From positions 1,984,001 to 2,048,000 of the forward strand of contig NZ_CP078091.1 of the NCBI RefSeq assembly GCF_025917005.1: a DNA stretch of 64,000 nt, read 5' to 3'. This document shows, in pieces, positions 27,419-43,340 of this stretch (position 1 is its first letter; every line of letters starts with the position of its first letter). This DNA comes from Porphyrobacter sp. ULC335. GTDB lineage: Bacteria > Pseudomonadota > Alphaproteobacteria > Sphingomonadales > Sphingomonadaceae. The translations under genes and the position numbers were made by a program. The notes beneath the pieces were generated by a model, which was not told where the DNA came from, ran no database searches, and worked only from the letters and a program-made list of their open reading frames with translations.

Positions 27419-28357
27419 ATGTCGGAGTGTGCGACCGAAATTCTCGGGACGAGCCGTGCGATCGCGCATTTGCGCGACTTCGTGCCCAAGCTCGGTCGCA
27501 GTGACGCCTCATTGCTCATCACCGGCTCGACCGGCACCGGCAAGGAACACATTGCCCGTGCTGTCCACCAGCATAGCCACCGCTCACGCAAGCCCTTCGT
27601 TGCGATCAATTGCGGCGCAATTCCCGATAACCTGTTTGAAGCCGAATTGTTCGGCTTTGAACGCGGCAGTTTCACAGGTGCATTCCAGGCCCAGAAGGGC
27701 AAGGCGGTTCTGGCCGACGGCGGCACGCTGTTTCTTGACGAGATCGGCGAGCTGTCGCCGCTTTGCCAGACCAAGCTTTTGCGGATGCTGGAGGAGCGCG
27801 AAGTGCAGCCGATTGGCGCCCCGCGCCCGGTCAAAGTCGATCTGCGCGTCGTGGCTGCCACCAACCGTTCGGTCGAGGAACAGGTGGAAGAAGGCAGTTT
27901 CCGTTCGGACCTGTACTTCCGCCTCAACGTCGCCCGCATTGTGCTTCCCGATCTGAGCGAACGGCCCGAGGATATCGCGATCTATCTCCTCCACTTCATC
28001 CGTCATTTCAACGAGCGTACCGGCTATAATGTTGGCGGGCCGAATGCCGAGCTGCTTGATGTGCTCAGCCAATACGACTGGCCGGGCAATATCCGCGAGG
28101 TGCGCAATTTCGTGGAAGGGGTGTTCATCGATCCGCCGCGTGGTGCGATCGGGGTCGATCACATCCCCCAGGCATTCATGCAGCTCCAGCGTTCATGGCG
28201 GCGTAGCGGTACCGACGAGCGCGACCGCATCCTGGCGGCGCTGGAGGCGACAGACTGGAACAAGGCCGAAGCAGCCAAGGCGCTGCGCTGGTCGCGCATG
28301 ACGCTGTACCGCAAACTCACCAAGCATCACGTCACGCGCGGCGGGCTGGGGCTGTGA
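27419..28357 (+). CDS. Sigma-54-dependent transcriptional activator lacking a sensory domain
   Basis: A 312-residue bacterial enhancer-binding protein. Almost the whole protein is the AAA+ domain: Walker A GSTGTGKE (about residues 37-44), the sigma-54 contact loop GSFTGA (canonical GAFTGA with A to S), Walker B GGTLFLDEIGE, sensor I VAATNRSVEEQV, sensor II WPGNIREVRNFVEG. The C-terminal 45 residues are a Fis-type HTH (LAALEATDWNKAEAAKALRW, then SRMTLYRKL). No receiver, GAF or PAS domain, so like PspF it may be held by a separate partner. ATG 27419 has GGGAG 9 bases upstream; GTG 27350 is the next upstream candidate. It lies immediately upstream of a sigma-54 promoter. Confidence 0.9.
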   Translation: MSECATEILGTSRAIAHLRDFVPKLGRSDASLLITGSTGTGKEHIARAVHQHSHRSRKPFVAINCGAIPDNLFEAELFGFERGSFTGAFQAQKGKAVLADGGTLFLDEIGELSPLCQTKLLRMLEEREVQPIGAPRPVKVDLRVVAATNRSVEEQVEEGSFRSDLYFRLNVARIVLPDLSERPEDIAIYLLHFIRHFNERTGYNVGGPNAELLDVLSQYDWPGNIREVRNFVEGVFIDPPRGAIGVDHIPQAFMQLQRSWRRSGTDERDRILAALEATDWNKAEAAKALRWSRMTLYRKLTKHHVTRGGLGL

Positions 28358-28391
28358 CACGTGTCGCAGGTTGCGGCGTATCATGTGACAC
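28353..28391 (+). promoter_or_regulatory. Candidate enhancer sites for the sigma-54 activator
   Basis: TGTGACAC occurs at 28353-28360 and again at 28384-28391, 31 bases apart (about three helical turns, so on one face). The first is part of TGTGACACGTGTCGCA, a 16-bp palindrome with one mismatched pair. They lie 55-93 bases upstream of the -24 element, the usual place for enhancer-binding protein sites. The first overlaps the activator gene's own stop codon. Confidence 0.6.
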
Positions 28392-28445
28392 TGCCTGAAC
28401 CTTCGGACCCGGCATAAATATCTGAAAAACTGACATTTAGGAATC

Positions 28446-28460
28446 TGGCACGGGGCTTGC
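28446..28460 (+). promoter_or_regulatory. Sigma-54 (-24/-12) promoter
   Basis: TGGCACGGGGCTTGC matches the consensus TGGCACG-N4-TTGC in every fixed position, with GG and GC spaced correctly. Transcription would start about 28472, some 20 bases before the ATG of the DUF3467 gene at 28494. It is the only such element I found in the region and would drive the 28494-43340 operon. Confidence 0.88.
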
Positions 28461-28493
28461 GCCGCTTTGCACGATGCAAGGAGTTGCGGACCG

Positions 28494-28913
28494 ATGACGC
28501 GTTTCAAGACCGGTCAGGAGCAGGATCGCCACCTGGGCGCCGACGCCCCGGCCGCGCTCTATGTCAATTACTTCGAGATGGGTCACAACCCGTTCGAATT
28601 CCTGATCGACTTTGGCCAGTTCCGTCCCGGCATGGCCAGCAACGAAGCTGATAGCGACGGGACGACCGTGATCCACTCGCGCCTTGCGATGGCGCCCCCC
28701 TACGCAAAGATGCTGACCGAGATGCTCGTCCGCTCGCTTCGCGACCACGAGACCGAGCATGGCGAAATCCTTTTGCCGACAAGTTCCGACCCCCTTCCTC
28801 CGACTGTCAGCGAAGACCTGCTGGCGCCGCTCGGCGACTTCGAGGCGCGCGCCCGCGCACTTCGGGCCGCCGCGCAATCTGTTCGTCCAACCAACAACAA
28901 GGTAGGCTCATGA
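28494..28913 (+). CDS. DUF3467-domain protein, first gene of the sigma-54 operon
   Basis: A 139-residue soluble protein. Residues about 20-80 fit DUF3467 (YVNYFEMGHNPFEFLIDFGQ, then VIHSRLAMAPPYAKMLTEML), a small domain of unknown function found in bacteria and archaea. The C-terminal 50 residues are Pro/Ala-rich and helical. ATG 28494 is chosen because AGGAG lies about 10 bases upstream; the frame from 28467 begins before the predicted transcript start. Its TGA overlaps the next ATG (ATGA, 28910-28913). Confidence 0.85.
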   Translation: MTRFKTGQEQDRHLGADAPAALYVNYFEMGHNPFEFLIDFGQFRPGMASNEADSDGTTVIHSRLAMAPPYAKMLTEMLVRSLRDHETEHGEILLPTSSDPLPPTVSEDLLAPLGDFEARARALRAAAQSVRPTNNKVGS

Positions 28914-31588
28914 CCGCGCAAATCTCACCCAATCGCATGGAAGTCAGCGATCGCTTCCCGATGCTCGGCTTTGCCGTTCGCACCAGCCAGCCCGATGTCG
29001 AGGCCGAGGTGGTGATCGCGAGCGATATCTCGCTGTTCAGCACCCAGAACCGGCAGATGCGCACACCCGCAAACTTCTACACCAGCCGCGAACATGGCAC
29101 GTTGACAGTGCCGCGCGGTGACGGCGTGTTCGTGGTGCCGCCCGAAGTGCTGGCGCGCTTTATCGGCAGCGAGAAGCTCTATTTCGGACTTGCCACCGGC
29201 CGCAGCGGAAACGGCGGCCTGCAGGTCGATGCCTTGCCGCGCGAGGGTAGCCCTTACGTGTCACTGCGCGGGTTCACCGGACGCACGCTGCGGCGCGCGT
29301 TCGGCAGCATGCGTCCCACCGCGCCGCGGCTTGAATGGGCAGGCGATCAGCCGCGTCCCGGAAGCGAGACGGCGCCTTCCGGTGCCGCCAGCCCCGCCGT
29401 GGCCGGTGGCACACCGGGCGGCTCTCTCCCGCCGGTTCCTTATGATGACGGCTTTGGCCCAATGCCGGAAATCCCGGCGCGCGAGAGCCGCTATGCCCCG
29501 CAGAATGGCGGCAATGTACGCGGCTTGCGCGGGATTCCGCTGTCGCACGCCGCGGCTTCCAATGGGGCGGGAGCAGGGCGCACCGCGCTCGCGCTCGGCA
29601 GCGGCTACACCGCGCAGCAGGCGCTCGATTATATCCGGCGGCTGGTCGAACAGGTGGTCGATGTGGTCGGATCGGACGCCACGCCCCCGTCGCTTTGGCG
29701 GCTGGGAAGCGATAGCGCCGCCTTCATCACCGCTTGGGAAACCGTGCTGACCCCGCTCGGCTGGACCAATCCCACCTATGCTTTCATGAAAGCGCTGCCC
29801 GGTCTTGCGCGGTCAAGCGGCGTCACGCTGTCGATCGGGCCCACGATCAGTGGCGGTATGTTCGATGCGGGCGTGGGCGTTGTTTTCGCCCCTGACGGCC
29901 AGGTTGCACTGTTCGGCCAGACCGATTTCGAGATCAGCATTTCGAGCCTCGGCGACCTCGTCGACAACCTCAAGATGGCCCTCGCGGCCAGCATGAAGCT
30001 CGGCTACAATAATGGCGGGCTGGACGGCTTCGAGAGCCTCGGCAAAGTCGCCGGGTTGATGGAAGGTGTCGAGATCGTTGTCGGCGCCGAAGTCTGGCTC
30101 GACCGCAATGGGCGCGGGCTGGGCGGTGCGGTCAGCATCGGGGTCGGCTTCTCGGTCCAGCTCAGCGCTGAAGAAACCGGGGCGGCCCCGGCTATCGTTC
30201 CCCCGGCGCTTCCCGGCGATCCGCGCCAACGTGCGGAACGGATTGGCGGCGGCTTTGGCCAGCGGATCGGCGAGGCGCTCGATCTCGGGCTTGAACCCGA
30301 TGGGCTGACCCGGCTGCTCGACACGCTTGATCCGCCCGCCACGGCCAAGCCGGTCGGCACGGCGATGGGAAGCCCGGTGTGGTCGATCCAGTGGGACGAT
30401 ATCCAGCTGGTGGCCCAGCCGACCGACAATGGCTGCTGGGCGACGACGCTCGCCATGCTGATCGGCTGGCGTGATCAGGTCAGCATCGCGCCGGAAACCA
30501 TCGCCGGACAATGCGGCCGCGACATCGCCAATGGCCTGCCGTGGGCGGAGCGTGCCGATGTGGCCCGCCAGCTCGGCCTTGGCACCGTCCCCCCGCAATG
30601 CTTCATGCCCGAGGCCTTCAAGGCCCTGATCGAGAACCACGGCCCGCTCTACGTCGGCAAGATGGCGAGTGCGACCACGCTGTCGGGTCACGCGGTGCTG
30701 GTGGCGGGCATGTATTCCGACGGAACGGACCATTTCATCCGCGTCGTCGATCCATGGGATCGGGCGGTGGGCACCCCGGGTGCTCCCGGCGCGCACGGCC
30801 CCGGCCATACGCAGGGCAGCCGCTACATCATCAAGTACGAGGATTTCCAGTCCGAGTACGAAATGGCGGCCGATGGCGATCCGGCGTACGTCCAGATCAT
30901 CTATGCAGGCGTGCCTGCGGGTCGGGTGATCAACCGCTCGCTCTCCGCACCGACCGGCTTCGCGATGGGCGGCGGGTCTGCCGGGCGCAAGCTCGCGCCG
31001 CCGCCCGCGCCGCACGTGCGCGAAATGAGCGCGGCCGAGATCGCCGGGATCGCCATTGACGTGATCACCAACAATACTGGCGACATCAGGACCAACCTCG
31101 CCAACTGGTCCGGGATCAAGCATCCGCGCGATCAGGCCCCGCGCCGCGAGGCGACGTTCGAAGCCGGGGAGATCAACCTGCGCGACTGGCCGATGGTCGG
31201 CGGCACCTTCGGGATCGACGACATCTACTGCTGGCTCAAGATCCGTTGGCAATACAACGGCACCTCGCTCGGCAGGGTATACATCACGGCCGACGGGCAT
31301 GATGACGCTGTCGGCTGGGGCCTTACCGTTACCGCCACGATCGAGGATGATTCGCGCCTCTATGCCCGCTCGTCGCAGGCGCGGGCAGCAGGGCCCGATC
31401 AGGTTCCGGCGCTGCATATCAACATCGACTACGTCTTCGACGAGACGATCGTTGCCGATCAGGTCGCCAACACCCGCGTGTCGCTGTTTGCTGACGGGAC
31501 GCACGCGATCGAGAGCCGGTGGGTGCAGCATTCGCGGCCCGGCGGCGGCAATCCGACCAATGTCGTCCGGCCCTTTGAACACGCCTGA
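28910..31588 (+). CDS. Large protein with central papain-like (AvrRpt2-type) cysteine protease domain
   Basis: An 892-residue protein with no signal peptide. Residues about 1-130 are a beta-rich domain I do not recognise. A Pro/Gly linker follows, then about 230-430, a region with GPTISGGMFDAGVGVVFAPD and a Gly-rich segment. The protease domain has the AvrRpt2/C39-like triad: Cys509 (in DNGCWATTLAMLIGW), His594 (in SGHAVLVAGM) and Asp614 (in VVDPWDRAVG), with Gln about 5 residues before the Cys for the oxyanion hole. The last 210 residues are a beta-rich domain with no assignment. Translationally coupled on the upstream side. It probably processes or modifies proteins of the same operon; that is inference. 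Confidence 0.85.
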   Translation: MTAQISPNRMEVSDRFPMLGFAVRTSQPDVEAEVVIASDISLFSTQNRQMRTPANFYTSREHGTLTVPRGDGVFVVPPEVLARFIGSEKLYFGLATGRSGNGGLQVDALPREGSPYVSLRGFTGRTLRRAFGSMRPTAPRLEWAGDQPRPGSETAPSGAASPAVAGGTPGGSLPPVPYDDGFGPMPEIPARESRYAPQNGGNVRGLRGIPLSHAAASNGAGAGRTALALGSGYTAQQALDYIRRLVEQVVDVVGSDATPPSLWRLGSDSAAFITAWETVLTPLGWTNPTYAFMKALPGLARSSGVTLSIGPTISGGMFDAGVGVVFAPDGQVALFGQTDFEISISSLGDLVDNLKMALAASMKLGYNNGGLDGFESLGKVAGLMEGVEIVVGAEVWLDRNGRGLGGAVSIGVGFSVQLSAEETGAAPAIVPPALPGDPRQRAERIGGGFGQRIGEALDLGLEPDGLTRLLDTLDPPATAKPVGTAMGSPVWSIQWDDIQLVAQPTDNGCWATTLAMLIGWRDQVSIAPETIAGQCGRDIANGLPWAERADVARQLGLGTVPPQCFMPEAFKALIENHGPLYVGKMASATTLSGHAVLVAGMYSDGTDHFIRVVDPWDRAVGTPGAPGAHGPGHTQGSRYIIKYEDFQSEYEMAADGDPAYVQIIYAGVPAGRVINRSLSAPTGFAMGGGSAGRKLAPPPAPHVREMSAAEIAGIAIDVITNNTGDIRTNLANWSGIKHPRDQAPRREATFEAGEINLRDWPMVGGTFGIDDIYCWLKIRWQYNGTSLGRVYITADGHDDAVGWGLTVTATIEDDSRLYARSSQARAAGPDQVPALHINIDYVFDETIVADQVANTRVSLFADGTHAIESRWVQHSRPGGGNPTNVVRPFEHA

Positions 31589-31590
31589 CG

Positions 31591-32730
31591 ATGGCCGACC
31601 GGCACCACCTTCCTCCTCCGCCCTCCGCATCGGGGCGTCAGGCCACCTCCGGCCTTGCCCCGATGCCGCAGGCGATGGCCGGGTTCTGGGACCGCTCGGG
31701 CGGTGAAGAAACCGCGCCCGATACACTCCCCGATGAACAGCCAGAGCAGGCCCAGCCCGTAGCCGCGCGCGAGCCTGCCACGGCCACCCTGGGCAGGCGT
31801 GCGGGCGCGGTTACCGACGAGCTCGATTTCCCTGAATTCGTCGCCTCGCTGATCCACGGCACTTGGGATGCGATGGTGGACAGCTCGATCCGCCAGATGG
31901 ATGCCTATGCCGACCTGGTGGCGGCGATCTCCAAGCCGCTGTCGCAATTCCGTGACGAGAACGTCACCGCCAATCAGGCGCGCGACTGGCTGGTGGCGCA
32001 ATATCCTGGCGATCTGGCGCTGGTGCGGGGCGAGAGCGAGCCGCTGGTCATTCCGCGCGGCGGCAGCGACGAATTCGGCGATGCGCCGTCGCCTGCATGG
32101 CTGCGCGAATACGGCGCGGACGGCCAGCCGCTCAGCCCCGAGCTGATCGAGGAAGTGCTGGTCCCCGCTGCGCGTGACAGGTTGGCGGGCGACCGGATGC
32201 AGACTCTCGCCACGCTGGTGATGATGGGCATGAACCGCATCGTCGTGCGCGACGGCTCGATCACCGCGCGGCTCAAGTTCCGGGCCTCGGCGGCGGACAA
32301 GACTGCGGTCGATTATGCCGTCAGCGATGATCCCGCGAGCGCGACCCCGACCGGCAGCTGGTCGACGCGGGGCAGCACGGCCTATGCCTCTCCGGTCACC
32401 AAGGTCTCGACCGTCGGCGTCAATGCGCAGACCGACACCACGCTCAACGCCGAGTTGTTCGGCGAGGTGAAGATCAACTTCGCGAGCGAGACCATCCCGC
32501 TTGACCGGTTCGTCGATGACGCACGGCGCACGATGCTCGAACGCGCGGCCAAGCCTGCGCAGATCACAGCGCCTGCACCTGCACCTGCACCTGCACTGGC
32601 ATCCATGCCCGCGCCGGCAGTGCCAGTCAGCGCGCCAATGGCCCCGCCAGTGCCAGTGCCAGCGCCCGTGGCCGTCGCCGCGCCGGTGCCCGTTCCGGCG
32701 CCAGCCACTCCGGCGGAGCCACGGCCATGA
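31591..32730 (+). CDS. Operon paralogue 1 (three-block family)
   Basis: A 379-residue protein, first of four paralogues in this operon. Shared block A: FPEFVASLIHGTWDAMVDSS followed by IRQMDAYADLVAAI (about residues 81-115). Block B: LATLVMMGMNRIVVRDGSI (about 206-225). Block C: NAELFGEVKINFASETIPLD (about 290-310). It lacks the N-terminal helical domain seen in the other three and has instead a Pro-rich start and an Ala/Pro tail of about 60 residues. No signal peptide or true transmembrane helix. Starts 2 bases after the protease gene; its stop overlaps the next start. No match to a named family that I know. Confidence 0.82.
   Translation: MADRHHLPPPPSASGRQATSGLAPMPQAMAGFWDRSGGEETAPDTLPDEQPEQAQPVAAREPATATLGRRAGAVTDELDFPEFVASLIHGTWDAMVDSSIRQMDAYADLVAAISKPLSQFRDENVTANQARDWLVAQYPGDLALVRGESEPLVIPRGGSDEFGDAPSPAWLREYGADGQPLSPELIEEVLVPAARDRLAGDRMQTLATLVMMGMNRIVVRDGSITARLKFRASAADKTAVDYAVSDDPASATPTGSWSTRGSTAYASPVTKVSTVGVNAQTDTTLNAELFGEVKINFASETIPLDRFVDDARRTMLERAAKPAQITAPAPAPAPALASMPAPAVPVSAPMAPPVPVPAPVAVAAPVPVPAPATPAEPRP
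32572..32598. repeat. Short tandem repeat coding Ala-Pro
   Basis: Several near-perfect copies of the hexamer CCTGCA encode a PAPAPAPAP run in the tail of paralogue 1. Such runs can expand or contract in steps of two residues without breaking the frame. Confidence 0.7.
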
Positions 32731-32996
32731 CTGGCGCACGGCGCAGCCTTGAAGACATGATCGGCGAACTTGCCGAAGGCCTTTTGCCGCAGCTCCAGGG
32801 CGGAACAGTGCGGCCGACTTCGATCGACCTTACGCTCCCCGTCGAAACCCGGCTTGAGCAGCGCACGGCCGACGAAGGCGGGGCGCTGCACGTCATGACC
32901 GATATGCCGCGCACCCACACCCGCACCGATTTCGACCTGCCGATGGGCCGCATCACTCTCTCGCTCGGCGTCACGCCTTGGGAGGCCGTGTCATGA
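32727..32996 (+). CDS. Small hypothetical protein of the sigma-54 operon
   Basis: An 89-residue soluble protein (begins MTGARRSLEDMIGELAEGLL) with a short N-terminal helix and a beta-rich remainder (TSIDLTLPVETRLEQ, ITLSLGVTPWEAVS). Not recognised. ATGA overlaps at both ends tie its translation to paralogue 1 and to the following HhH protein. Codon use matches its neighbours, so it is likely real despite its size. Confidence 0.72.
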   Translation: MTGARRSLEDMIGELAEGLLPQLQGGTVRPTSIDLTLPVETRLEQRTADEGGALHVMTDMPRTHTRTDFDLPMGRITLSLGVTPWEAVS

Positions 32997-33808
32997 GCGG
33001 GTTCGGCAACAATCAGGCGGTGGCGCTGGAGGATTTCATTCAGGCGGTGCAATCGCAGCTGGATACGGCGCAGACCCGGATGTCGCTGAAGGCGCAGAAC
33101 GACAAGCTGCCGCTGACCTTCGCGATCCGCGACATTGCCATGGACCTCAAGGCCCATGTCGAACTCGCCGATGGCGAGGTGCGGATCCGTCCGGCCCAGC
33201 CGCAGGACAAGGACACCACCGTTCTCCGTATCGGCTTCACCGCGATCACCAAGCCGATGATCGAGGAGAACGCCATCCAGCTGGCGGTCGATGACGATCA
33301 GGATGTCTCGCTCGACTCGCTCGGCGATGATCTTGCGCCCGATGAACGCCGGCGGCTTGAGGGCATCGGTGTCCGCACCGTTGCCAAGCTGGAGGAAATG
33401 CGGCGGCGGGGGCTGGCCGGTTCGGTGGGGCGGATCACGCGCCTGCCGGTCGACAAGCTTGAAAGCGTGCTGTCGCGCGCCACGCGGCCGATGGTCGATG
33501 ACGTATCGAGCGAAAGCGATAATTCGGGATCGAGCGAGCTGCGCCAGCGCCTCCGGGTACGCGGCCGCAATCTCTTGCGTGACGGGGTTCCGCCGCGCGT
33601 CGCGATCGGCGGGCGCGAGGTCGGCGTGGTGCAGGCCAGCGACGATTTGATCCTGCTCGAACCTGGCCCCGACCAGTTCGCCGGGCAGATGAGCCTCGAA
33701 TATGATCCACGCGCCCGCACCGAGGTGTGGTTCGACCAGAGCCAGCTTTCATCCTTCGGGATGGCGGGTGCTGACATGACGCGGCCCGGTAATGGAGGCA
33801 CGCAATGA
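32993..33808 (+). CDS. Helix-hairpin-helix plus IPT/TIG-like domain protein
   Basis: A 271-residue protein. Residues 1-115 are an unassigned alpha/beta region that ends in an acidic stretch. Residues about 115-165 read as a helix-hairpin-helix pair (ERRRLEGIGVRTVAKLEEMR, RRGLAGSVGRITRLPVDKLE), similar to DUF4332-like HhH modules. Residues about 185-250 look like an IPT/TIG immunoglobulin-like strand domain (LRVRGRNLLRDGVPPRVAIG onwards). ATG 32993 has GGAGG 7 bases upstream and overlaps the previous stop. Both domain calls come from sequence pattern only. Confidence 0.75.
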   Translation: MSGFGNNQAVALEDFIQAVQSQLDTAQTRMSLKAQNDKLPLTFAIRDIAMDLKAHVELADGEVRIRPAQPQDKDTTVLRIGFTAITKPMIEENAIQLAVDDDQDVSLDSLGDDLAPDERRRLEGIGVRTVAKLEEMRRRGLAGSVGRITRLPVDKLESVLSRATRPMVDDVSSESDNSGSSELRQRLRVRGRNLLRDGVPPRVAIGGREVGVVQASDDLILLEPGPDQFAGQMSLEYDPRARTEVWFDQSQLSSFGMAGADMTRPGNGGTQ

Positions 33809-35324: not shown

Positions 35325-37367
35325 ATGGCTAAACCCACCACTTCTGGCAGCAGCGCTGCAACGCCCACCCCCGCGACTGCTGCGGCATCTGCCCCGCCGC
35401 CGCCCCCGCCCGTCACCGCAACCGCAACCACCGGAGGTCCCACGCCTCCGCCGACCCCACCCCCTCCGCCGCCAACCGGTGGCGGTTCGGGCGGCGGCGG
35501 CGGGTCCGGCGGACGCAGTGCTTCACCGGGTTCAGGAGGACTCAAGATGATGAATATCCGTTTCTACGATCTCGCCGAGCGGGAGATCGAAGCCCGTGCC
35601 CGTCTCGAGAACGAATGGCAGCGGCTGGACAACCGCAAGAGCAAGGGTGCCGGAAACAATAACGGGAGTGGCAACACCAGCGGCAACGGCACGCTCGGCA
35701 CGGCCGACCAGCTGGAATACGCCCGTCTGACCAGCCTGAAGGCGATCGCCGATGGCACGGTTGGCAAGCCCCCGCAGTTCATCGACCCGCTGTTCGCCTC
35801 GGTCCGCACGCTGCTGGCGAGCAACAATTTCGGCTTGAACCCGATCGATGTCGAATATGTCTTTACCGGCAAGGTGCCTGAGGCGGTTCTGAAGTTCCCC
35901 TCGCTCGCCAAACCCGATCAGAGCAACGAGGTCGTCCGCGTCGCGTTGACGCTCGGCCTGCTGCAATTGTGGGGCGCGCCGGTCCCGCGTCTTGTGGCCG
36001 ACAAGTCCGACAATGCCGTGCCGGACAAGACCCACCAGAACTACAGCAGCTTTGGCGAAGTGATGGTGCGGGCGATGGCGCGCGCTTCGGCCAACCTGCC
36101 GCTGGCGGCGCATACGCTCAAGACGCTGGTCGATGCGGTCAACGTTCCCGGAGACCGTCGCTCGCCCGACATCTCGACGGTCGATTTCGCCAAGACATTC
36201 GAGAAGCTGCTCGACAGGGACGTGCAGGTCTCCGACCCGAGCATCAAGCTCCAGATCGAGGACGCTTTCGAGCGCGTCCAGCGCATCGGTGCCGATACGC
36301 CGCTGCATGAATTCGTGCTCAACCTGCCCGATCTCGAAGCGGCGACCGATATCGAGGTGATCCCCGAACATTGCCGCCTGATGGGATCGTTCATCTTCGC
36401 CTCCGCCTTCGAGGAGTTGAAGGCCTTCCAGGTGGTCGACAAGCTGGTGGAGCTGTCACAGCGCGGCGAGATTCCGCTGATGCGCGGACCGGCGGGCACC
36501 CAGCTCTACAATTACTGGCGCGAGGCGCCGAACCGGATGAGCGAGGTCGAACGCCAGAACTTCTACGCCATGACCCTCGGCCTGCCGACCGGTCAGCCGG
36601 GCGTCGGCGTCAACGCCGATTTCCAGGACCTGTGGCTGCGGTTCGTCTCCTCGATCTCGACACTGGTGCGCGAAAGCCGGGTGGAGAACCTGCTGCGGTC
36701 GAACATTCCGCTGGCGGTCAACCAGCAACAGGTCAAGAAAGCGGCCCGCGATCTGGCGCACAACATGTCTTCGCGCGGCTACGGCATGGCGTTCTATGCC
36801 GCGGCCGATCTCAACAAACAGATCAACGAGATCATCCAGCTGCTCAGCAACAAGGAGCTCCAGCGCGTATTCGGCGCGACCAGCCCCTATGACGTGATCG
36901 AGCAGGTCGCCCAGACCGAACTGGGCGGGGCGCGCAATTCGTCCAAGTACCGGATGCTGGCGACGTCGGGCGCGATCATCACCAACTGGATCGCCGATCA
37001 TGCCGACCGGCTGCGCGATCCGACCTTGCCGATGATCGACCTCCAGAACGTCGCCTATCCGCCGGCCCGCGCCTCCGGGGCGACTGCGGTATCGAACCCG
37101 ACCGACTATGATCTCGTCAATGCCTGCGAGATGTGGCTGGCGGATTCAGCGATGGGCGAGGACCGGGTGGCGATCCTGTCCGAACCGCGCGAAAGCCCGC
37201 AGCATTCCAGCCGTCCGATCCAGATCCCGAGCATCGCGCGCGATCTGCTCGAAGGCACGGGGCTGGGCCTGGGGATGGGATACGGCGGCGGTTACGGCGG
37301 CGGATACGGCAATGGCAATGGCGCAGCTCCGGCGCGCGCCAATGGCCGTTCTTACGGCGTCTACTGA
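35325..37367 (+). CDS. Large operon protein with Pro/Gly-rich head and Gly/Tyr-rich tail
   Basis: A 680-residue protein with no recognised domain. Residues 1-75 are Ser/Thr/Pro/Gly-rich (a run of prolines, then GGGSGGGGGSGG). The main body of about 560 residues is alpha-helical with a Ser/Asn/Gly linker near residue 110. The tail is GYGGGYGGGYGNGNG. ATG 35325 has GGAAGGA 7 bases upstream; ATG 35265, overlapping the protease stop, is the longer option. A second excellent start is internal: AGGAGGA (35534-35540) with ATG 35547, which would make a form lacking the head. The segment DLWLRFVSSISTLVRESRVE faintly recalls block A of the paralogues. Confidence 0.82.
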   Translation: MAKPTTSGSSAATPTPATAAASAPPPPPPVTATATTGGPTPPPTPPPPPPTGGGSGGGGGSGGRSASPGSGGLKMMNIRFYDLAEREIEARARLENEWQRLDNRKSKGAGNNNGSGNTSGNGTLGTADQLEYARLTSLKAIADGTVGKPPQFIDPLFASVRTLLASNNFGLNPIDVEYVFTGKVPEAVLKFPSLAKPDQSNEVVRVALTLGLLQLWGAPVPRLVADKSDNAVPDKTHQNYSSFGEVMVRAMARASANLPLAAHTLKTLVDAVNVPGDRRSPDISTVDFAKTFEKLLDRDVQVSDPSIKLQIEDAFERVQRIGADTPLHEFVLNLPDLEAATDIEVIPEHCRLMGSFIFASAFEELKAFQVVDKLVELSQRGEIPLMRGPAGTQLYNYWREAPNRMSEVERQNFYAMTLGLPTGQPGVGVNADFQDLWLRFVSSISTLVRESRVENLLRSNIPLAVNQQQVKKAARDLAHNMSSRGYGMAFYAAADLNKQINEIIQLLSNKELQRVFGATSPYDVIEQVAQTELGGARNSSKYRMLATSGAIITNWIADHADRLRDPTLPMIDLQNVAYPPARASGATAVSNPTDYDLVNACEMWLADSAMGEDRVAILSEPRESPQHSSRPIQIPSIARDLLEGTGLGLGMGYGGGYGGGYGNGNGAAPARANGRSYGVY

Positions 37368-37390
37368 CACCCTCGCACAGGAGACAGGCC

Positions 37391-38443
37391 ATGCCTTTCG
37401 AACCGCTCAGTGCACCGCTCAAGTCCCGCTTGCAAAACGCGGCGCGAACCCTGCGGACGGCCAATCCGATGAGTTACGTCAACGGGTTGCTCGAAGACAG
37501 CTTCGCCCTGCCGATGGGTGACAGCCGATACTTGCGCAATCATCTGGTCCAGGGCGCCGCGCCGTTCCTGCCGAAGTACGAATCCGCCCAGCAGCGGGTG
37601 CTGTCCTTCGCGCTCGAACCGCTCGGCCCCGATGCCTCGCCTACCGACCGGCGCGACGGGGCAACCCGCGAGATGCGGCGGCTGGTCAGCGACAACTTCG
37701 GCAATGCGGCGCTCCACTGGCTCGACAGGGCCAGCGAAAGCGAACGTTCGCTCTGCCGGCGCGGCGCTATGAACTACGGCGCGTTCTTCGGGTCGAGCTT
37801 CGATGGCGATGGCCTGCAAAGCGCGACCATCACCTATGAAGGCGGGGTGGGCAGCCATTCCAGCATCAATCCCGATCTGGCGCGGCTTGTCATGGCTTCG
37901 ATGTCGGCGATGCCGGGGCTGCGGCCGCTGTTCACCACGCTGGTCGCAGGCCGCGATTACGGCAGCCAGTGGGTGACGTTCCTGCTCACCAACGGCTTCC
38001 GGCTGGTGGAGATGCAGCCGATGCTCGACGAGCTGGGGCTGGGTCAGCGGCTTGCCGGGATCCTTCAGGTGGTGGGCGTGGCGCTGGGCGGACGGTTCGA
38101 CATTCCGTCGGGCGCGGCGCTGGTCGCCTTCGGGCGCGGGCCGGAAGGGGTCAGCCTCGAACTGCAGGTGATGCTCGACGCGATCCCCGATGTGCCGCCC
38201 AACTTCCTGCAATTGCTGACGATGAACCTGCGCGAACGCCCGCGCGAGCTGGCCTCGCTGGAACGATTCCTCGAAGCCTTCACGCCGGAAGACAACATCT
38301 GGCCCGGCCGCTTCAGCATCCTGACGATCCGCATCGGCCCATCCGGCCCGCCGCGCATCGGCTTGTCGCTGCGACCGATCGAGTTCGAAATCAGCCCCGC
38401 AGCCGCGCTGGTCACGGCCAGCACTCCGCCCGCGCTCGCCTGA
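37391..38443 (+). CDS. Hypothetical protein of the sigma-54 operon, 350 aa
   Basis: A 350-residue mixed alpha/beta protein with no signal or membrane helix. Features: SYVNGLLEDSFALPMGDSRY near residue 30, AMNYGAFFGSSFDGDGL, MLDAIPDVPPNFLQLL, and a beta-rich C-terminus (FSILTIRIGPSGPPRIGLSL). I do not recognise it. ATG 37391 has AGGAGA 6 bases upstream; the longer frame from 37133 overlaps the previous gene and is rejected. Codon use matches the rest of the operon. Confidence 0.78.
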   Translation: MPFEPLSAPLKSRLQNAARTLRTANPMSYVNGLLEDSFALPMGDSRYLRNHLVQGAAPFLPKYESAQQRVLSFALEPLGPDASPTDRRDGATREMRRLVSDNFGNAALHWLDRASESERSLCRRGAMNYGAFFGSSFDGDGLQSATITYEGGVGSHSSINPDLARLVMASMSAMPGLRPLFTTLVAGRDYGSQWVTFLLTNGFRLVEMQPMLDELGLGQRLAGILQVVGVALGGRFDIPSGAALVAFGRGPEGVSLELQVMLDAIPDVPPNFLQLLTMNLRERPRELASLERFLEAFTPEDNIWPGRFSILTIRIGPSGPPRIGLSLRPIEFEISPAAALVTASTPPALA

Positions 38444-38498
38444 GTTTCCCGCCGCCGCTGTCGCTGTCCGAGGCGAGCGGCTCTGAAGGATGACCACC

Positions 38499-39845
38499 AT
38501 GACCGCGCTTGCTTTTGCCCCATCGCCCGATCCTGCCGCCGCCGATCTGCCCGCGCCCCGCCCGGAAGTGCGCGCCAAGGTGCACGATCTGCTCCGCGCC
38601 TCTCCCTCGTTCCACGAGCTGCCGCCCGCGCGCCAGCAGCAAGTGGCGCGCGACACCGCGCTGATTGCTGATGCCTTGGTGGGTAGTCAGGTGCCGGGCG
38701 CTGCGTCCGTCTCCTCGCAGGCGATGGCGGGCGGAAACGACCAGTGGGAGTCGAACCAGGAAGCTGTCGCCGCCATCGGCGAAGACCCCTTCACCGCCGG
38801 CGCGGCGCGCGAGGGCGCGGCGGTCGCGGGCGAGTTCATGCGGCAGGTCAATTTCGTCGAATTCGTGTCCGGCCTGATCGACGGGGTGTTCAATTCGATT
38901 GTGACGTCGAACATCCAGCAGATGGAAGCCTATTCCAAGATGGTCGCCGACGTGTCGAAGTCGCTCAACCAGTTTCGCGATGACAACACCACGTCCGACG
39001 ACGGCAAGGACAATCTGGTCGATGCCTTCCCCGACGTGTTCGACATCGGCGTCGACGCGCTGACGGGCGCAGGCGAACCGACGCTGAAACTGAAGGACGG
39101 GGTCGATCAGGACGCGGCGCTCGCGCAGGTGCAACAGTCACTGGGCCAGCACACTGACAGCGCGATCGAATCCATTGATGTGTCCGATCCCGAAGTCGCC
39201 CAGACGCTGATCCTCGCCTCGCGCCAGCAGATCGCGACCTCGCGCCAACAATTGCTGGCAACGATGGTGCTGATGGGCCTGTCGCGGATTGTCGTCACCA
39301 ACGGCAAGATCCAGGCCAAGATCATGTACGATTTCAATGCGTCCAGCCAGCGGGTCTTGTCGCGCAGCGCGCAGGCGCGGGACTTTGCCCGCGACGCGCA
39401 GGGCAACATGATCCTGACGACCGAAGAGGAAGGCGAAAGCGAGACCAGCGACAAGGGAAAGCGCACCCGCGATTACACCTACGAAAGCGGGAAGGGCACC
39501 TACACCGGCAGCTACGACGCCGATTACTACACCAAGGGCAAATACAAGTACGCCCAGAAGCCGATCATCACCGCCCAATCGATGGCGAGCGAGACGCAGA
39601 CCGACAACTTCTCGGCCAAAGCGAGCCTGATGGGTGCCGTCGAGGTCAACTTCAAATCGGATTATCTGCCGCTCGAAAAGATGGCGACGCCCGAGATGAT
39701 GGCGGCGATCCAGATGCGCTCGAAGCCGATCGATCACAACAAGCCGCAATATGTTCCGGGTCCGGCGCAAGCCCCCGCGCCGGCACCCGGAGCACCCGCG
39801 CCCGCCGCTGCGGCGGCACCGGCACCCGTACCGGCAAGGGCCTGA
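38499..39845 (+). CDS. Operon paralogue 2 (three-block family)
   Basis: A 448-residue protein. N-terminal helical domain (VRAKVHDLLRASPSFHELPP, then RQQQVARDTALIADAL) is shared with paralogues 3 and 4. Block A: VEFVSGLIDGVFNSIVTSN with IQQMEAYSKMVADVSKSLNQ. Block B: LLATMVLMGLSRIVVTNGKI. Between B and C is a Tyr/Lys/Gly-rich stretch (YTGSYDADYYTKGKYKYAQK). Block C: GAVEVNFKSDYLPLEKMATP. An Ala/Pro tail ends the protein. ATG 38499 is preferred (GAAGG 9 bases upstream) over ATG 38490. Confidence 0.82.
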   Translation: MTALAFAPSPDPAAADLPAPRPEVRAKVHDLLRASPSFHELPPARQQQVARDTALIADALVGSQVPGAASVSSQAMAGGNDQWESNQEAVAAIGEDPFTAGAAREGAAVAGEFMRQVNFVEFVSGLIDGVFNSIVTSNIQQMEAYSKMVADVSKSLNQFRDDNTTSDDGKDNLVDAFPDVFDIGVDALTGAGEPTLKLKDGVDQDAALAQVQQSLGQHTDSAIESIDVSDPEVAQTLILASRQQIATSRQQLLATMVLMGLSRIVVTNGKIQAKIMYDFNASSQRVLSRSAQARDFARDAQGNMILTTEEEGESETSDKGKRTRDYTYESGKGTYTGSYDADYYTKGKYKYAQKPIITAQSMASETQTDNFSAKASLMGAVEVNFKSDYLPLEKMATPEMMAAIQMRSKPIDHNKPQYVPGPAQAPAPAPGAPAPAAAAAPAPVPARA

Positions 39846-39848
39846 GCC

Positions 39849-41048
39849 ATGAGCGCGGTCACCCCCACGGCGCCGCCGGGCATATCGGCCCAATCGCTCG
39901 AAGCGGTGCGCCCGCAGGTGCAGGCGATGCTGACCCGCATCCCCGCCTATGCCCAGTTGAGCGGCGAAGAGCAGGGCAAGCTGGCGCACGACATGGTCAA
40001 GGTGCTGGCCTATATGAACGACCCCAACCGGGTGGTCGAACAATCCTCCGCGTCCCCTGCGCCGCTCGCCGAAGCGCAGAACCGCCGGCCCGATGCCAAC
40101 GAGCAGACCCGCCAGAACCTCTCCCGGTCACCCGGCTTTGCGGGCAAGGATTTTGTCGGCGGGGCGGCGCGCGAAGGCACCGAACAGTTCGGCAATCTGG
40201 TCAAGACGGTCGACTTCCCGGCGTTCGTCGGCGGGCTGATCAACAATGTCTTCAAGGTGATCGTCGAGACCTCGATCGAGCAGATGCGGGCTTACGGCGA
40301 ACTCGTCGCCGCCGTGGCCAAGACGGCCGATGAATACATGGCCGAGAATATCGGCATGGGGCAGGGCCGCGACTATCTGGCGCAGCGCTTTCCCGATCTG
40401 GTCGACGTCGAAGTGGGCGAGGATGGCAGTTCATCACTCAAGGTGATCGCCGAGGACGGCGAGACTGCCTTGACCGAGATCCACAACACGCTGGGCATGC
40501 CGGGCCAGCCGGTGACCGACATCAGTGATGCCGAAGCGGAGACGGTGTTCGTCAACGCCGCGCGGTTGCAGATGGCGAAATCCCGCCAGCAATTGCTCGC
40601 TTCGATGGTGATGCTGGGGATCAACCGCATCGTCGTGACCGACGGCACGATCAACGCCAAGGTGAAGTTCGACATGCGCTCCACCGACGAGGCGAAGCGG
40701 CAATACCGCGCATCGGCCTCCGACCGTCAAACCAGCCGCAACCGCAACACATCAGCCTTCGGCGGGACTTTCCTCGGCTTTGGCGGCGGATCGGTGAACG
40801 TCAACGAACAGTCGCATGTCGCCACGGTCAGCACCGGGGTGGACGAGACCAGCGAGTCCAAGCTCGAAATGTCGGCGCGGTTGCAGGGCGAGGTGCGGGT
40901 CAACTTCAAGTCCGATTACCTGCCGCTTGAAAAGATGGCGACGCCTGAAATGATCGGCGCGATCCAGGGCAATGCCCAGCCGACTGCGCCGCGGTCCATG
41001 CCGGCAGGCGCGCCCGCAGCGGCGCCGGCCGCAGGGGGGACAACATGA
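39849..41048 (+). CDS. Operon paralogue 3 (three-block family)
   Basis: A 399-residue protein, closest to paralogue 2. N-domain: VRPQVQAMLTRIPAYAQLSG with EEQGKLAHDMVKVLAYM. Block A: FPAFVGGLINNVFKVIVETS with IEQMRAYGELVAAVAKT. Block B: LLASMVMLGINRIVVTDGTI. Block C: GEVRVNFKSDYLPLEKMATP, nearly identical to that of paralogue 2. Instead of the Tyr/Lys insert it has a Gly/Phe stretch (FGGTFLGFGGGSVNVNEQS). Ends in a short Pro/Ala tail. Starts 3 bases after paralogue 2; its stop overlaps the next ATG. Confidence 0.83.
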   Translation: MSAVTPTAPPGISAQSLEAVRPQVQAMLTRIPAYAQLSGEEQGKLAHDMVKVLAYMNDPNRVVEQSSASPAPLAEAQNRRPDANEQTRQNLSRSPGFAGKDFVGGAAREGTEQFGNLVKTVDFPAFVGGLINNVFKVIVETSIEQMRAYGELVAAVAKTADEYMAENIGMGQGRDYLAQRFPDLVDVEVGEDGSSSLKVIAEDGETALTEIHNTLGMPGQPVTDISDAEAETVFVNAARLQMAKSRQQLLASMVMLGINRIVVTDGTINAKVKFDMRSTDEAKRQYRASASDRQTSRNRNTSAFGGTFLGFGGGSVNVNEQSHVATVSTGVDETSESKLEMSARLQGEVRVNFKSDYLPLEKMATPEMIGAIQGNAQPTAPRSMPAGAPAAAPAAGGTT

Positions 41049-41986
41049 ACGCACGGATGGTCGCCGCGCTCGATACCACCGCGCCGTTCGGCCTGCGCCG
41101 GGCGCTGGACGAGGCAGGCGCGCTGCTGCTGTCGTGCGAGCTGCAATCGACGATGCTCGCCGAGCTCGACTTGCCCGAACTCCCTCCTGCCGCGCGCGCC
41201 GACGCGATCCAGCTGCGTGCGGCGGCAAGCCTCTACCTCGCCTCGACGCTGGAGGCGGCAGGCGTGATCCAGGCGGCCGACGATCTCACCCGGCTGCTGC
41301 GCAGCGGCGCGGTGCAAGGCGATCCCGGCACGGCCGCCCCATTGATCGAGGCCTTCTGGGACGACCGTCACCAGCGCGCCAGCGAGACCGAGCGGCTGGC
41401 GCTGTTCGACCGCCTGTTCGGCGCGCCCGCAGGGCCGCAGGACATAGCCACCGGCTCCAACCACGAATTCGAGGAGCTGTTGCTCAACCTGTGCGATGCG
41501 CTGATGAAAGCGGTCGAGGGTGGCAGCCATGCGCGGGTGCGTTCGGCGGCGCTTACGCTCGCTGAGAATCTGGCGCAGGCCACAAATGGCGTGGTGCAGA
41601 TGCTGGCGGGCGAGATACTCTCCAGCCTGTCGGCAGCGGTGGCGATCCTCAATCACCCCGATCTGCGCATGATGCTTGGCGGGCGCACGATGTGGGATGC
41701 GGTCGCCTCTATCGACCGCCGCCTCAAACGGCCTGCCCGCCCGACCCTGACCCATCTGCGGCGCGGGCGGGCGGGTATGGCACTGCTGGCCTGGCTTGCC
41801 GACAATGTCGACCGGCTCGAATCTTCGGGCGGGCCCATGGTCGCGGCCGGCGATCTGGTGGTCGATGCCGCAATCGACTGGATTGACGAAACGCTTTCGA
41901 TCGTGCGCGGCGACGATGGCCCTCCGGCTGCACCCGCCGAACGCAGGCCGCAGGCGAGCTCGGGCTGGCACGATCTGGGGCGCTAG
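41045..41986 (+). CDS. Alpha-helical hypothetical protein of the sigma-54 operon
   Basis: A 313-residue, almost entirely helical Ala/Leu-rich protein (for example AADLTRLL-type heptads, FEELLLNLCDALMKAVEGGS, LAQATNGVVQMLAGEILSSL). No signal, membrane span or known domain. ATGA overlap with paralogue 3 and 4 bases before paralogue 4 place it firmly in the operon; sitting between two paralogues it may be a partner or scaffold for them. Function unknown. Confidence 0.78.
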   Translation: MNARMVAALDTTAPFGLRRALDEAGALLLSCELQSTMLAELDLPELPPAARADAIQLRAAASLYLASTLEAAGVIQAADDLTRLLRSGAVQGDPGTAAPLIEAFWDDRHQRASETERLALFDRLFGAPAGPQDIATGSNHEFEELLLNLCDALMKAVEGGSHARVRSAALTLAENLAQATNGVVQMLAGEILSSLSAAVAILNHPDLRMMLGGRTMWDAVASIDRRLKRPARPTLTHLRRGRAGMALLAWLADNVDRLESSGGPMVAAGDLVVDAAIDWIDETLSIVRGDDGPPAAPAERRPQASSGWHDLGR

Positions 41987-41990
41987 GCCC

Positions 41991-43340
41991 ATGCCGCTGC
42001 CCGAGCTTGAGCGCCCCCCGGCCGAACTCCGCCTCGCCGTGCGCGAGGCGCTGACGCGGGACGGTGCGGCACAAGCACTGGGCGAGGACGAGCGCCGCGA
42101 CATTGCCCGCGCGTTGGTGCGCATCGCCCATGCCGCGCAATTGCTCGATTCCGACGGCACGACGCCCGCCGCACCGCCTGCGAAGCCTCTTGCTCGGGGA
42201 ATGAATGCGGCCGGAGCCTATGGTGGCAACGCGGTCGCCAACATGGCCGATACCGCGCGCCGCACGCTCCAGGCGATCAGCTTCCCGCGATTTGTCTCCG
42301 AACTGATCCAGGGCGTGTTCCGCGCGATGCTGGAAACCAATCAGGCGCAGTTGCAGCAATATCTCGATCTGGTGCGCGCAGTCTCGCAGTCGCTCGATGG
42401 CTATGCCTCGCTGGGGGGCGGGGGTGACGACGCGGCAAAGCGCTGGCTGGCGGAGCAATTCCCATCAAGCTACGCCATCGAAGAGCCCGATCCCGAGGAT
42501 GTGGAGCGCGCCCGGCTCGATCCCGAGGAGGAGCTTGATCCGATCCGGCTGACCACGCGCGGTGCGGCCCCCAGCGCCGATGCGATCCGCGCCGCGCTGG
42601 GCACAGAAGCCGATGCCGAAGTGCCCACCAGTCCGCAGGATCTGGTTGCCTTCGTCAAACGCTCGCTGGCGCGCAACCGGCAGGGGATGCTGGCGACGAT
42701 GATCCAGATGGGGATGCAGCGGATCGTGATCGATTCCGGGCGCATCCATGCTTCGATGCGGTTTCATATCGACGCGACTTCGGCGGCGGCAGAACAGGCG
42801 CATACCGGGTTTGACACGCGGCATTCGGTTTCGGCCAGTGCCTCTGGCGGGTGGGGACCGTTCAGCGCCTCGGCCGCGGTCAGTTCGAGCATCGGCTTCG
42901 TGCGCACCACCGACACCCAGACCGAGGAGCGCACCAATGCCTCGGCTGACCTCAATTCCTCGGTCGAATTACAGTTCCGCACGGATCAGGTGCCGCTTGA
43001 CCGGATTGCCTCCTCGCAAACAGTCGACCGGTTGCGGCTCAACACCCTCAACCCCGAACGCGAAATGGAGATAGCGGGCGAGACCGACCGCGCGCGGATC
43101 AGCGCCAATCAGGCGGTCGATACGGCGCGGGCCAGCCGCGAGCGGACTGAACTCGCGCCCGGCGAGGTTCCCACGGCGCCGACTCTGCCGACTAGAACGG
43201 GTGGTGCGTCGGGAGGCGGTTCAGGCGGGGGTGCAGCAACAGGCGGTGCTGCGCCAGGTGGAGCGGCAACAGGCGGTGCTGCAACAGGCGGTGCGGCGAC
43301 CGGCGGCGGTGCGACGGGCGGTGCCGCCCCGACGGCCTAG
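41991..43340 (+). CDS. Operon paralogue 4 (three-block family), Gly-rich tail
   Basis: A 449-residue protein, the most diverged paralogue. N-domain: LRLAVREALTRDGAAQALGE with DERRDIARALVRIAHAA. Block A: FPRFVSELIQGVFRAMLETN with QAQLQQYLDLVRAVSQSL. Block B: MLATMIQMGMQRIVIDSGRI. Block C: SSVELQFRTDQVPLDRIASS. A Ser/Ala-rich beta segment (VSASASGGWGPFSASAAVSS) precedes C. The tail is a repeated pentapeptide (GGAAT/GGAAP). Last gene of the operon; a tRNA-Pro follows on the other strand and no clear terminator hairpin is visible. Confidence 0.82.
   Translation: MPLPELERPPAELRLAVREALTRDGAAQALGEDERRDIARALVRIAHAAQLLDSDGTTPAAPPAKPLARGMNAAGAYGGNAVANMADTARRTLQAISFPRFVSELIQGVFRAMLETNQAQLQQYLDLVRAVSQSLDGYASLGGGGDDAAKRWLAEQFPSSYAIEEPDPEDVERARLDPEEELDPIRLTTRGAAPSADAIRAALGTEADAEVPTSPQDLVAFVKRSLARNRQGMLATMIQMGMQRIVIDSGRIHASMRFHIDATSAAAEQAHTGFDTRHSVSASASGGWGPFSASAAVSSSIGFVRTTDTQTEERTNASADLNSSVELQFRTDQVPLDRIASSQTVDRLRLNTLNPEREMEIAGETDRARISANQAVDTARASRERTELAPGEVPTAPTLPTRTGGASGGGSGGGAATGGAAPGGAATGGAATGGAATGGGATGGAAPTA
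43243..43332. repeat. 15-bp tandem repeat encoding GGAAT/GGAAP
   Basis: Six imperfect 15-base units of the type GGCGGTGCTGCAACA in phase with the reading frame of paralogue 4, coding GGAAP, GGAAT, GGAAT, GGAAT-like and GGGAT units. Likely to vary in copy number by slippage while keeping the frame. Confidence 0.85.

What the first reader, a model, noticed from the sequence alone, without database searches (positions are those of the whole stretch)
27419..43340. Undescribed-looking sigma-54-controlled operon of eleven genes and two proteases
Seen: an enhancer-binding protein gene, a consensus -24/-12 promoter, then eleven co-directional genes over 14.9 kb, most overlapping by ATGA. Contents are a DUF3467 protein, a protein with a papain-like protease, a subtilisin, an HhH/IPT-like protein, four mutual paralogues and several unassigned proteins. 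None has a signal peptide. Established: only DUF3467, AvrRpt2-like peptidase, S8 peptidase and bEBP are known families. Inference: the paralogues are the building blocks of an intracellular or cell-released assembly that the proteases mature, made in one burst. I know of no described system with this set.
Basis: partly seen in the sequence, partly recalled or inferred. Interest (0 to 1): 0.92.

Follow-up and report, generated by a model that had tools for sequence, protein, structure and literature searches.

The report
Undescribed twelve-gene sigma-54 enzyme-assembly island
A self-contained set of twelve genes under its own on-switch, found as a block in distantly related bacteria, appears to make an unknown protein assembly carrying exchangeable wall- and protein-cutting enzymes; no described system that we could find matches it.

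Summary
The operon is real: a bEBP gene, a perfect -24/-12 site, then twelve (not eleven) co-directional genes, 28494-43340, on a ~16.4 kb insertion beside tRNA-Pro that is absent from two same-genus genomes compared. A scan of 84,980 species genomes found 31 further contigs in 30 assemblies (alpha-, beta-, gammaproteobacteria, Desulfobulbus, Actinomycetota); gene order agrees in 31 of 31 as far as contigs reach. The four paralogues form four clades; trees show transfer between classes and phyla. The sigma-54 site precedes gene 1 in 25 of 25 loci, with a recurrent TGTNACA motif; four Roseobacteraceae copies carry their own rpoN. Gene 2 is modular: constant ends around varying hydrolase domains (C70 25/27, N-acetylmuramoyl amidase 13/27, DUF3238, C92, trypsin). 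The S8 triad is conserved 31/31. No profile or PDB-sequence match was found for the paralogues, g7 or g8, and no fold match for g10 or g7 (the two that were modelled). Best reading: an inducible multi-subunit particle, matured by S8, whose exchangeable hydrolase payload attacks cell walls. The module is well supported; its function is inferred. An intracellular suicide/defence system is the main rival.

The parts
26969..43384 (.). genomic island (approximate ends) holding the whole system
   Evidence: flank homology to same-genus genomes ends at 26914-26968 and resumes at 43372-43385; two relatives (L083, L086) have 113-174 bp there
27419..28357 (+). bEBP: sigma-54 activator, AAA+ and Fis-type HTH, no sensor domain found
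   Evidence: Pfam
28353..28390 (+). two TGTGACA enhancer (UAS) candidates, 28353-28359 and 28384-28390
   Evidence: sequence; motif 42 sites vs 0.86 expected over 25 loci, motif chosen after inspection of the same loci
28446..28460 (+). -24/-12 sigma-54 promoter TGGCACGGGGCTTGC
   Evidence: 11 of 11 consensus positions; 9-11 of 11 in all 25 loci tested
28494..28913 (+). g1, DUF3467 protein, 139 aa
   Evidence: Pfam 32.0 bits
28910..31588 (+). g2, modular hydrolase carrier with one C70 papain-like domain in this copy, 892 aa
31591..32730 (+). g3, paralogue A, 379 aa
   Evidence: alignment A1; clade support 100
32993..33808 (+). g5, Trypco2-like N-terminus, HhH/IPT-like rest, 271 aa
   Evidence: Trypco2 E 0.03 here, 0.0002 in L018, all below cut-off; TIG in the Tolypothrix relative
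33805..35268 (+). g6, S8 subtilisin-type peptidase, 487 aa
   Evidence: 123 bits; triad motifs in 31 of 31
35265..37367 (+). g7, helical protein, 700 aa as called (true start may be further in)
   Evidence: AF2 pLDDT 72; no significant fold match
37391..38443 (+). g8, conserved unknown, 350 aa
   Evidence: 45-71% identity in 23 orthologues aligned; no family
38490..39845 (+). g9, paralogue B, 451 aa
39849..41048 (+). g10, paralogue C, 399 aa
41045..41986 (+). g11, homologue of the later part of g7, 313 aa
   Evidence: HHalign 99.6%; tblastn
41991..43340 (+). g12, paralogue D, 449 aa
43389..43465 (-). tRNA-Pro(ggg) bordering the island
   Evidence: ARAGORN

Best explanation
SHOWN by sequence: a self-contained module of twelve genes, kept in order and transferred between lineages, preceded by a dedicated sensorless bEBP gene, a recurrent TGTNACA motif and a -24/-12 promoter. 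INFERRED: when the bEBP is freed (DUF3467 protein g1 is a candidate partner, because g1 and the bEBP are both missing in the two Cellulomonas loci), the cell makes in one burst a soluble multi-subunit assembly. Its body is built of four non-interchangeable paralogues (g3, g9, g10, g12), the helical g7/g11 and g8, with g4/g5 as adaptors. The S8 peptidase g6 trims or licenses it. Gene 2 is the exchangeable payload: constant N- and C-terminal docking regions flank one or more hydrolase domains (papain-like C70, N-acetylmuramoyl-L-alanine amidase, C92, trypsin). The target is most likely peptidoglycan and proteins of a bacterial envelope, reached after release by lysis or after local wall opening; that is, an inducible wall-attacking protein particle not built on the known contractile-tail parts.
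For: Same order in 31 of 31 contigs as far as they reach. Four paralogue clades, SH-aLRT 97-100 (quick tree), all four present in each locus not cut by a contig end, as expected of fixed hetero-oligomer subunits. g2 constant at both ends, variable within: C70 25/27, Amidase_2 13/27, DUF3238 10/27, C92 6/27, Trypsin_2 1/27; up to three C70 copies. S8 triad motifs 31/31. Compact relatives of the paralogues sit near a PG_binding_1 protein in Tolypothrix and, in L097, near a PG_binding_1/M15 protein and a gp19 tail-tube protein. Sigma-54 site 25/25; TGTNACA 42 sites vs 0.86 expected; own rpoN in four Roseobacteraceae loci (profile-tested for one).
Against: No secretion, sheath, baseplate or lysis family and no recognisable immunity gene among the twelve by profile. 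The amidase domain is in only half of the g2 proteins and not in the window copy; C70 need not act on the wall. The paralogue model is weak (pLDDT 63, pTM 0.37) and no oligomer was predicted. The g1-bEBP co-loss rests on two closely related loci. TGTNACA was chosen by inspection and the loci are related, so its excess is not an independent test. Some orthologues of g7 (5 of 32) and g11 (4 of 30) have a stretch hydrophobic enough for a membrane segment. The compact paralogue loci tested (L097, L098, L069, L052) lack a sigma-54 site and may do something else. Nothing here measures expression, assembly or activity.
Confidence: 0.38

Rival explanations
1. Intracellular biological-conflict (defence/suicide) system: the products stay in the cell; a trigger releases the S8 and g2 hydrolases, which destroy the own wall and proteins to stop an invader.
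For: Peptidases without obvious signal peptides, a Trypco2-like adaptor and variable effector enzymes recall the systems of Kaur et al. 2020 (PMC7159879, passages seen), where S8 or trypsin peptidases and papain/lysozyme-like wall effectors co-occur. The S8 protein matches PADLOC's subtilase model (E 2.6e-20) and, over 47 residues, IetS (E 2.7e-7). Patchy, island-borne distribution.
Against: No NTPase, vWA, MoxR, STAND or EAD family hit in the twelve genes (Pfam); Trypco2 stays below cut-off; the PADLOC S8 hits may be generic to subtilases; in PADLOC the other operon proteins tested gave nothing. That sigma-54 burst control is untypical of such systems is recalled, not tested.
Confidence: 0.27
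2. Cell-structure or envelope-maintenance apparatus: an assembly made under stress or in a life-cycle stage that remodels the own wall.
For: Many sigma-54 regulons serve envelope and appendage functions (recalled knowledge); wall-related domains in g2 and near compact relatives.
Against: Patchy (own genome plus 3 of 245 others of the order; none but the own among 398 drawn from the phylum), absent from close relatives, transferred between phyla; payload variability is unusual for own-wall upkeep.
Confidence: 0.15
3. Derived phage tail or contractile injection system that has lost recognisable similarity.
For: gp19 tail-tube protein (139.7 bits) a few genes after short paralogues in L097; weak ring-building-motif and flagellin rows for the paralogue model.
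Against: No PHROGs match for nine operon proteins (best E 0.065); no match for g10 in 50,697 phage records nor for g7 in a pattern-based IMG/VR scan; no significant PDB or BFVD fold match for the weak g10 model; no sheath, baseplate or tail ATPase by Pfam.
Confidence: 0.1
4. Anti-eukaryote (amoeba, fungus, plant) effector complex, the C70 domain acting like AvrRpt2 on host proteins.
For: C70 is the commonest payload (25/27); some carriers look root-associated by strain name (Rhizobacter sp. Root1221, Cellulomonas sp. Root930).
Against: No delivery machinery in the operon; also in Roseobacteraceae and a Desulfobulbus MAG; half of the payloads carry an amidase of the bacterial-wall type.
Confidence: 0.1

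Closest known systems
NTP-dependent conflict systems with peptidase cores and Trypco adaptors (Kaur et al. 2020, PMC7159879, passages seen)
   Same: peptidases, an adaptor resembling Trypco2 (below cut-off), variable effector enzymes including wall-directed ones, patchy distribution
   Different: no NTPase core, vWA, MoxR or STAND family found; twelve fixed genes, sigma-54/bEBP switch, four paralogues of unknown family
Extracellular contractile injection systems, tailocins, phage tails
   Same: multi-gene, co-expressed, hydrolase cargo conceivable; gp19 near a compact relative (L097)
   Different: no tube, sheath, baseplate or AAA+ loading ATPase found in the operon by profiles
Polymorphic toxin systems
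   Same: constant region plus exchangeable enzyme domains in g2
   Different: the variable part lies between two constant ends; no recognisable immunity gene; fixed company of eleven other genes
PspF/RtcR-type bEBP regulons
   Same: sensorless or small sigma-54 activator next to its target operon, -24/-12 site, enhancer candidates
   Different: target genes unrelated to psp or rtc
DUF2589 (PF11655) tandem-gene loci
   Same: tandem paralogues; similar helix-then-beta layout by eye; HHalign of g12 exceeds 40 of 40 column shuffles
   Different: not convincing for the pooled paralogues (2 of 40 shuffles reach it) or g10 (4 of 40 and 12 of 40); no S8, g2, g7 or g8 homologue found in the two annotated neighbourhoods examined

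Membership tests
sigma-54/bEBP-controlled operon | -24/-12 promoter before the first gene | tested here: met
   11/11 in the window; 9-11/11 in 25 of 25 loci, reached by at most 1% of 300 shuffles each; consensus recalled
sigma-54/bEBP-controlled operon | activator with AAA+ sigma-54 domain and DNA-binding HTH | tested here: met
   PF00158 217.5 bits, PF02954 50.6 bits
sigma-54/bEBP-controlled operon | upstream enhancer sites | tested here: inconclusive
   TGTNACA in 21 of 25 loci, 0.84 expected; 42 sites vs 0.86, but motif picked by inspection and binding not tested
sigma-54/bEBP-controlled operon | rpoN present in the genome | tested here: met
   own genome 220.8 bits; 5 of 6 genomes tested have a match, the Desulfobulbus MAG has none
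contractile injection system / tailocin / phage tail | sheath, tube, baseplate genes in the operon | tested here: not met
   Pfam on all 12 proteins; PHROGs on 9 of 12, not g1, g4, g6
contractile injection system / tailocin / phage tail | fold of tail components in paralogues | tested here: inconclusive
   no significant match but low-confidence model of one paralogue
VMAP/MoxR-type conflict system | NTPase plus vWA/VMAP component | tested here: not met
   no such Pfam hit in the 12 genes
VMAP/MoxR-type conflict system | Trypco1/2 adaptor | tested here: inconclusive
   g5: E 0.03 in the window; E 0.0002, 22.0 bits in L018, cut-off 24.2
polymorphic toxin system | exchangeable enzyme domain on a constant carrier | tested here: met
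   g2; toxicity not tested
polymorphic toxin system | immunity gene beside the toxin | tested here: inconclusive
   gene set does not change with g2 content and flanks are not conserved beyond close relatives, but immunity genes need not be recognisable by profile
T7SS mycosin | TIGR03921 above cut-off | tested here: not met
   144.5 bits vs cut-off 278.75
DUF2589 family | PF11655 profile match | tested here: not met
   no PF11655 hit at E<=1 for g3, g9, g10 or g12; profile-profile comparison only suggestive

The most novel reading that the evidence does not exclude
A hitherto undescribed class of bacterial nanomachine or particle, not derived from phage tails: four obligatory paralogues and helical partners form the body, an S8 peptidase licenses it, and a swappable cassette of wall and protein hydrolases is its payload. 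It moves between phyla as an island with its own sigma-54 switch, sometimes with its own sigma-54, and compact relatives exist in cyanobacteria, Desulfobacterota and Actinomycetota.
Probability: 0.35. Interest if true: 0.93.

Novelty: categorically new. Interest (0 to 1): 0.8.

Why it matters
A twelve-gene set kept in one order across Alpha-, Beta- and Gammaproteobacteria, Desulfobulbus and Actinomycetota very probably acts as one machine, yet eight of its proteins (g3, g4, g7-g12) matched no described family and none of those searched had a solved relative. The set, its switch and its boundaries are now defined, so its function is testable: turn on one activator gene and look. If it is a weapon or a suicide device, it adds a class not built on tails, needles or NTPase cores; the exchangeable hydrolases would also be a natural catalogue of wall and protein-cutting enzymes.

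Tried and rejected

Rows dropped or conditional: one of two g12 fragments of L031 was left out of the alignments, and paralogues under 300 aa out of the tree, which is a quick tree without bootstrap in which long branches of g12 and g3 meet. L023 was left out of the g2 scan (27 of 28 proteins). The 31 contigs were found with two short g7 peptide patterns, so they are a lower bound and 'in order' is conditional on g7; L048 and L051 come from one assembly and may be halves of one locus; L027, L029 and L043 are the genomes from which three of the four HMM seed sets came. In the sample counts the centre genome is a known carrier: order 4 of 246 with the own genome, phylum 1 of 398, the own, Actinomycetota 2 of 296 with the centre G246, Desulfobulbus phylum 3 of 148 with the centre G247.
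Full report
OBSERVATION. The window is part of a one-contig 3.6 Mb genome, G000. From 27419 a bEBP of 312 aa (Sigma54_activat, AAA lid, HTH_8; no sensor domain found) is followed by a -24/-12 site matching the consensus at 11 of 11 fixed positions (28446-28460), the only TGGCAC-N5-TTGC in the 64 kb, and by twelve genes to 43340. Six of eleven junctions overlap by four bases, one of them depending on the uncertain start of g7.

CONSERVATION. Paralogue profile searches matched the own genome and 3 of 245 others of the order, each with four paralogues; none but the own among 398 of the phylum sample; in Actinomycetota the centre (full set) and 1 of 295 others (compact); in the Desulfobulbus phylum the centre (full set) and 2 of 147 others (compact). 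One scan of 84,980 species genomes with the g7 alignment gave 31 contigs in 30 assemblies: Sphingomonas, Erythrobacter, Croceibacterium, Thermaurantiacus, Roseobacter, Ruegeria, Rhizobacter, Burkholderia, Massilia, Dyella, Desulfobulbus, Cellulomonas and an Actinomycetota MAG (two contigs). With HMMs of all genes, 31 of 31 show the same order as far as they reach; of 24 whose sequence reaches the bEBP, 23 have all thirteen genes and one (L050) lacks a separate g4. Two Cellulomonas loci lack bEBP and g1; in one of them (L044) g8 was not called separately and probably lies in the long g7 frame. Because these contigs were found through g7, the co-occurrence is measured outward from g7. Flanking genes are not conserved beyond close relatives, so the module is bounded by bEBP and g12. 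A Burkholderia pyrrocinia plasmid holds a further copy.

MOBILITY. Same-genus genomes align to the window up to 26914-26968 and again from 43372-43385; two of five examined have only 113 and 174 bp between. Two others have about 11.4 and 12 kb of other sequence there, and in a fifth no left flank lies within the 14.9 kb fetched; that content was only glanced at. No same-genus genome other than the own has a match. The right edge is the 3' end of tRNA-Pro(ggg). No repeats of 10 bp or more join the ends. The window proteins are closer to those of Rhizobacter, a betaproteobacterium (g8 70%), than to Sphingomonas pruni (51%), and in the tree the Cellulomonas rows lie among proteobacterial rows for all four paralogues: the block moves between classes and phyla.

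REGULATION. In all 25 loci with bEBP and g1 (window plus 24) a site scoring 9-11 of 11 stands between them, reached in at most 1% of 300 shuffles each. TGTNACA, a palindromic motif noticed by eye in these regions, occurs 42 times upstream of the sites where block shuffles give 0.86, in 21 of 25 loci (0.84 expected), 50-161 bp upstream of the -24 element; a relaxed form gives 104 vs 6.1. The loci are related and the motif was chosen after looking, so this is description, not an independent test. In the window a second TGTGACA overlaps the bEBP stop codon. The own genome has rpoN. Four Roseobacteraceae loci carry an rpoN-like gene starting 58-62 bp after g12, with the recalled RpoN box in all four; the L045 copy passes the NCBIfam rpoN cut-off (292.4 vs 277.35 bits). 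The Cellulomonas loci have no site above 8 of 11 and no TGTNACA upstream of g2; L035 has a BTAD-type activator upstream (98.1 bits). That g1 (DUF3467) is missing together with the bEBP there suggests, but does not show, that g1 is the bEBP's partner.

PROTEINS. g2 keeps roughly its first 185 and last 150-200 residues and varies between them: of 27 proteins scanned, 25 have C70, 13 Amidase_2, 10 DUF3238, 6 C92, 6 C39_2 (over the same stretch as C70 where positions were shown), 2 Peptidase_C1 (weak), 1 Trypsin_2, with up to three C70 copies. A C70 cysteine motif was found by pattern in 25 of 28 g2 proteins; a stricter His/Asp pattern in fewer. S8: Asp, His and Ser motifs in 31 of 31; in the plasmid collection its only relatives at E<=1e-20 are the copies in B. 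pyrrocinia and the three Tolypothrix-type plasmids, so it looks like a dedicated member. The paralogues fall into four groups with support 97, 99, 99 and 100 (quick tree). Their C-terminal 40 residues are P/A/G/S/T-rich in 25 of 28 (g3), 28 of 31 (g9), 25 of 30 (g12) but only 6 of 30 (g10). AF2 of g10 (26 sequences): pLDDT 63, long helical pair and a beta hairpin with an unmodelled insert. AF2 of g7: pLDDT 72, almost all helical. No significant fold match for either.

WIDER FAMILY. A Tolypothrix plasmid carries a compact relative: S8, a PG_binding_1/coiled-coil protein, one g7-like protein, one paralogue, two unknowns, a g4-like (E 0.009, weak) and a g5-like protein with TIG just below cut-off. 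Two genomes of the Desulfobulbus phylum have short tandem paralogues; in L097 a PG_binding_1/M15 protein, a gp19 tail-tube protein (139.7 bits) and papain-type proteins follow; L098 shows a similar PG-binding-type protein by eye but no gp19 on its short contig. An actinobacterium has short paralogues and a fused HhH-like protein. Paraburkholderia PGU19 and an alphaproteobacterium have one g7/g11-like protein in other cassettes with acidic/cationic proteins. The compact paralogue loci tested have no good sigma-54 site; the Paraburkholderia cassette has a 9-of-11 match 273 bp away.

HOW IT MOST LIKELY WORKS. Shown by sequence: one unit with one promoter, fixed membership, exchangeable payload, four old paralogue lines, transfer. 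Inferred: hetero-oligomeric assembly, S8 maturation, hydrolase attack on walls. The wall target rests on Amidase_2 in half of the payloads and on peptidoglycan-binding neighbours of compact forms; export is unexplained. The intracellular conflict reading fits the lack of export equally well, and PADLOC's subtilase and IetS models touch the S8, but the NTPase core of those systems is missing. I give 0.38 to the first and 0.27 to the second.

KNOWN OR NEW. Membership in sigma-54 regulons is met on promoter, activator and rpoN. Membership in contractile systems and VMAP-type conflict systems fails on tested features; polymorphic-toxin membership is partly met. Papers were seen as search listings, plus passages of PMC7159879, PMC10907252 and PMC3949148; no paper listed describes this set, within an open-licence library. 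Names such as ring-building motif, SARP, RpoN box, the sigma-54 consensus and AvrRpt2's function are recalled knowledge.

Noticed in passing
L045, L046, L047, L049 just after g12 (17999 etc.): An rpoN-like gene starts 58-62 bp after the operon in Roseobacteraceae (RpoN box in all four; NCBIfam cut-off passed for L045).
   Followed up: yes
L105 about 5950-8080 (G246:C1): Cellulomonas sp. Root930 has a sigma-54-like gene (96 bits), unexpected for an actinobacterium, beside an acidic/cationic protein gene preceded by a 10-of-11 sigma-54 site (1 of 300 shuffles reach it).
   Followed up: partly
L097 8710-19501: Short tandem paralogues followed by a PG_binding_1/M15 protein, a lone gp19 tail-tube protein and papain-type proteins; no other tail genes seen by eye in the next 20 kb (L100).
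   Followed up: partly
L082 7688-14873, L099 3178-13026: Another cassette type: glutamate/aspartate-rich proteins with a cationic hydrophobic stretch, a g7/g11-like protein and (L099) a trypsin without obvious signal peptide.
   Followed up: partly
L078 7392-9174, L079 7134-9214, L075, L076: DUF2589 genes followed by a conserved ~88-aa protein in a Vibrio plasmid, a cockroach deltaproteobacterium plasmid and two further genomes; DUF2589 genes there come as tandem pairs.
   Followed up: partly
window 26969-43384 next to tRNA-Pro 43389-43465: The same site holds about 11.4 and 12 kb of other content in L085 and L087, and perhaps more in L084, so it may be an insertion hotspot.
   Followed up: partly
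L050 6198-7619: g3 was called at 473 aa and no separate g4 was called; possibly a g3-g4 fusion.
   Followed up: no
L044 9977-12952: A 991-aa open frame starts with g7 and no separate g8 was called in Cellulomonas humilata; possibly a g7-g8 fusion.
   Followed up: no
L035 1189-1500, L044 1174-1491: A conserved ~100-aa protein lies between the BTAD-type regulator and g2 in Cellulomonas, in the place of DUF3467.
   Followed up: no
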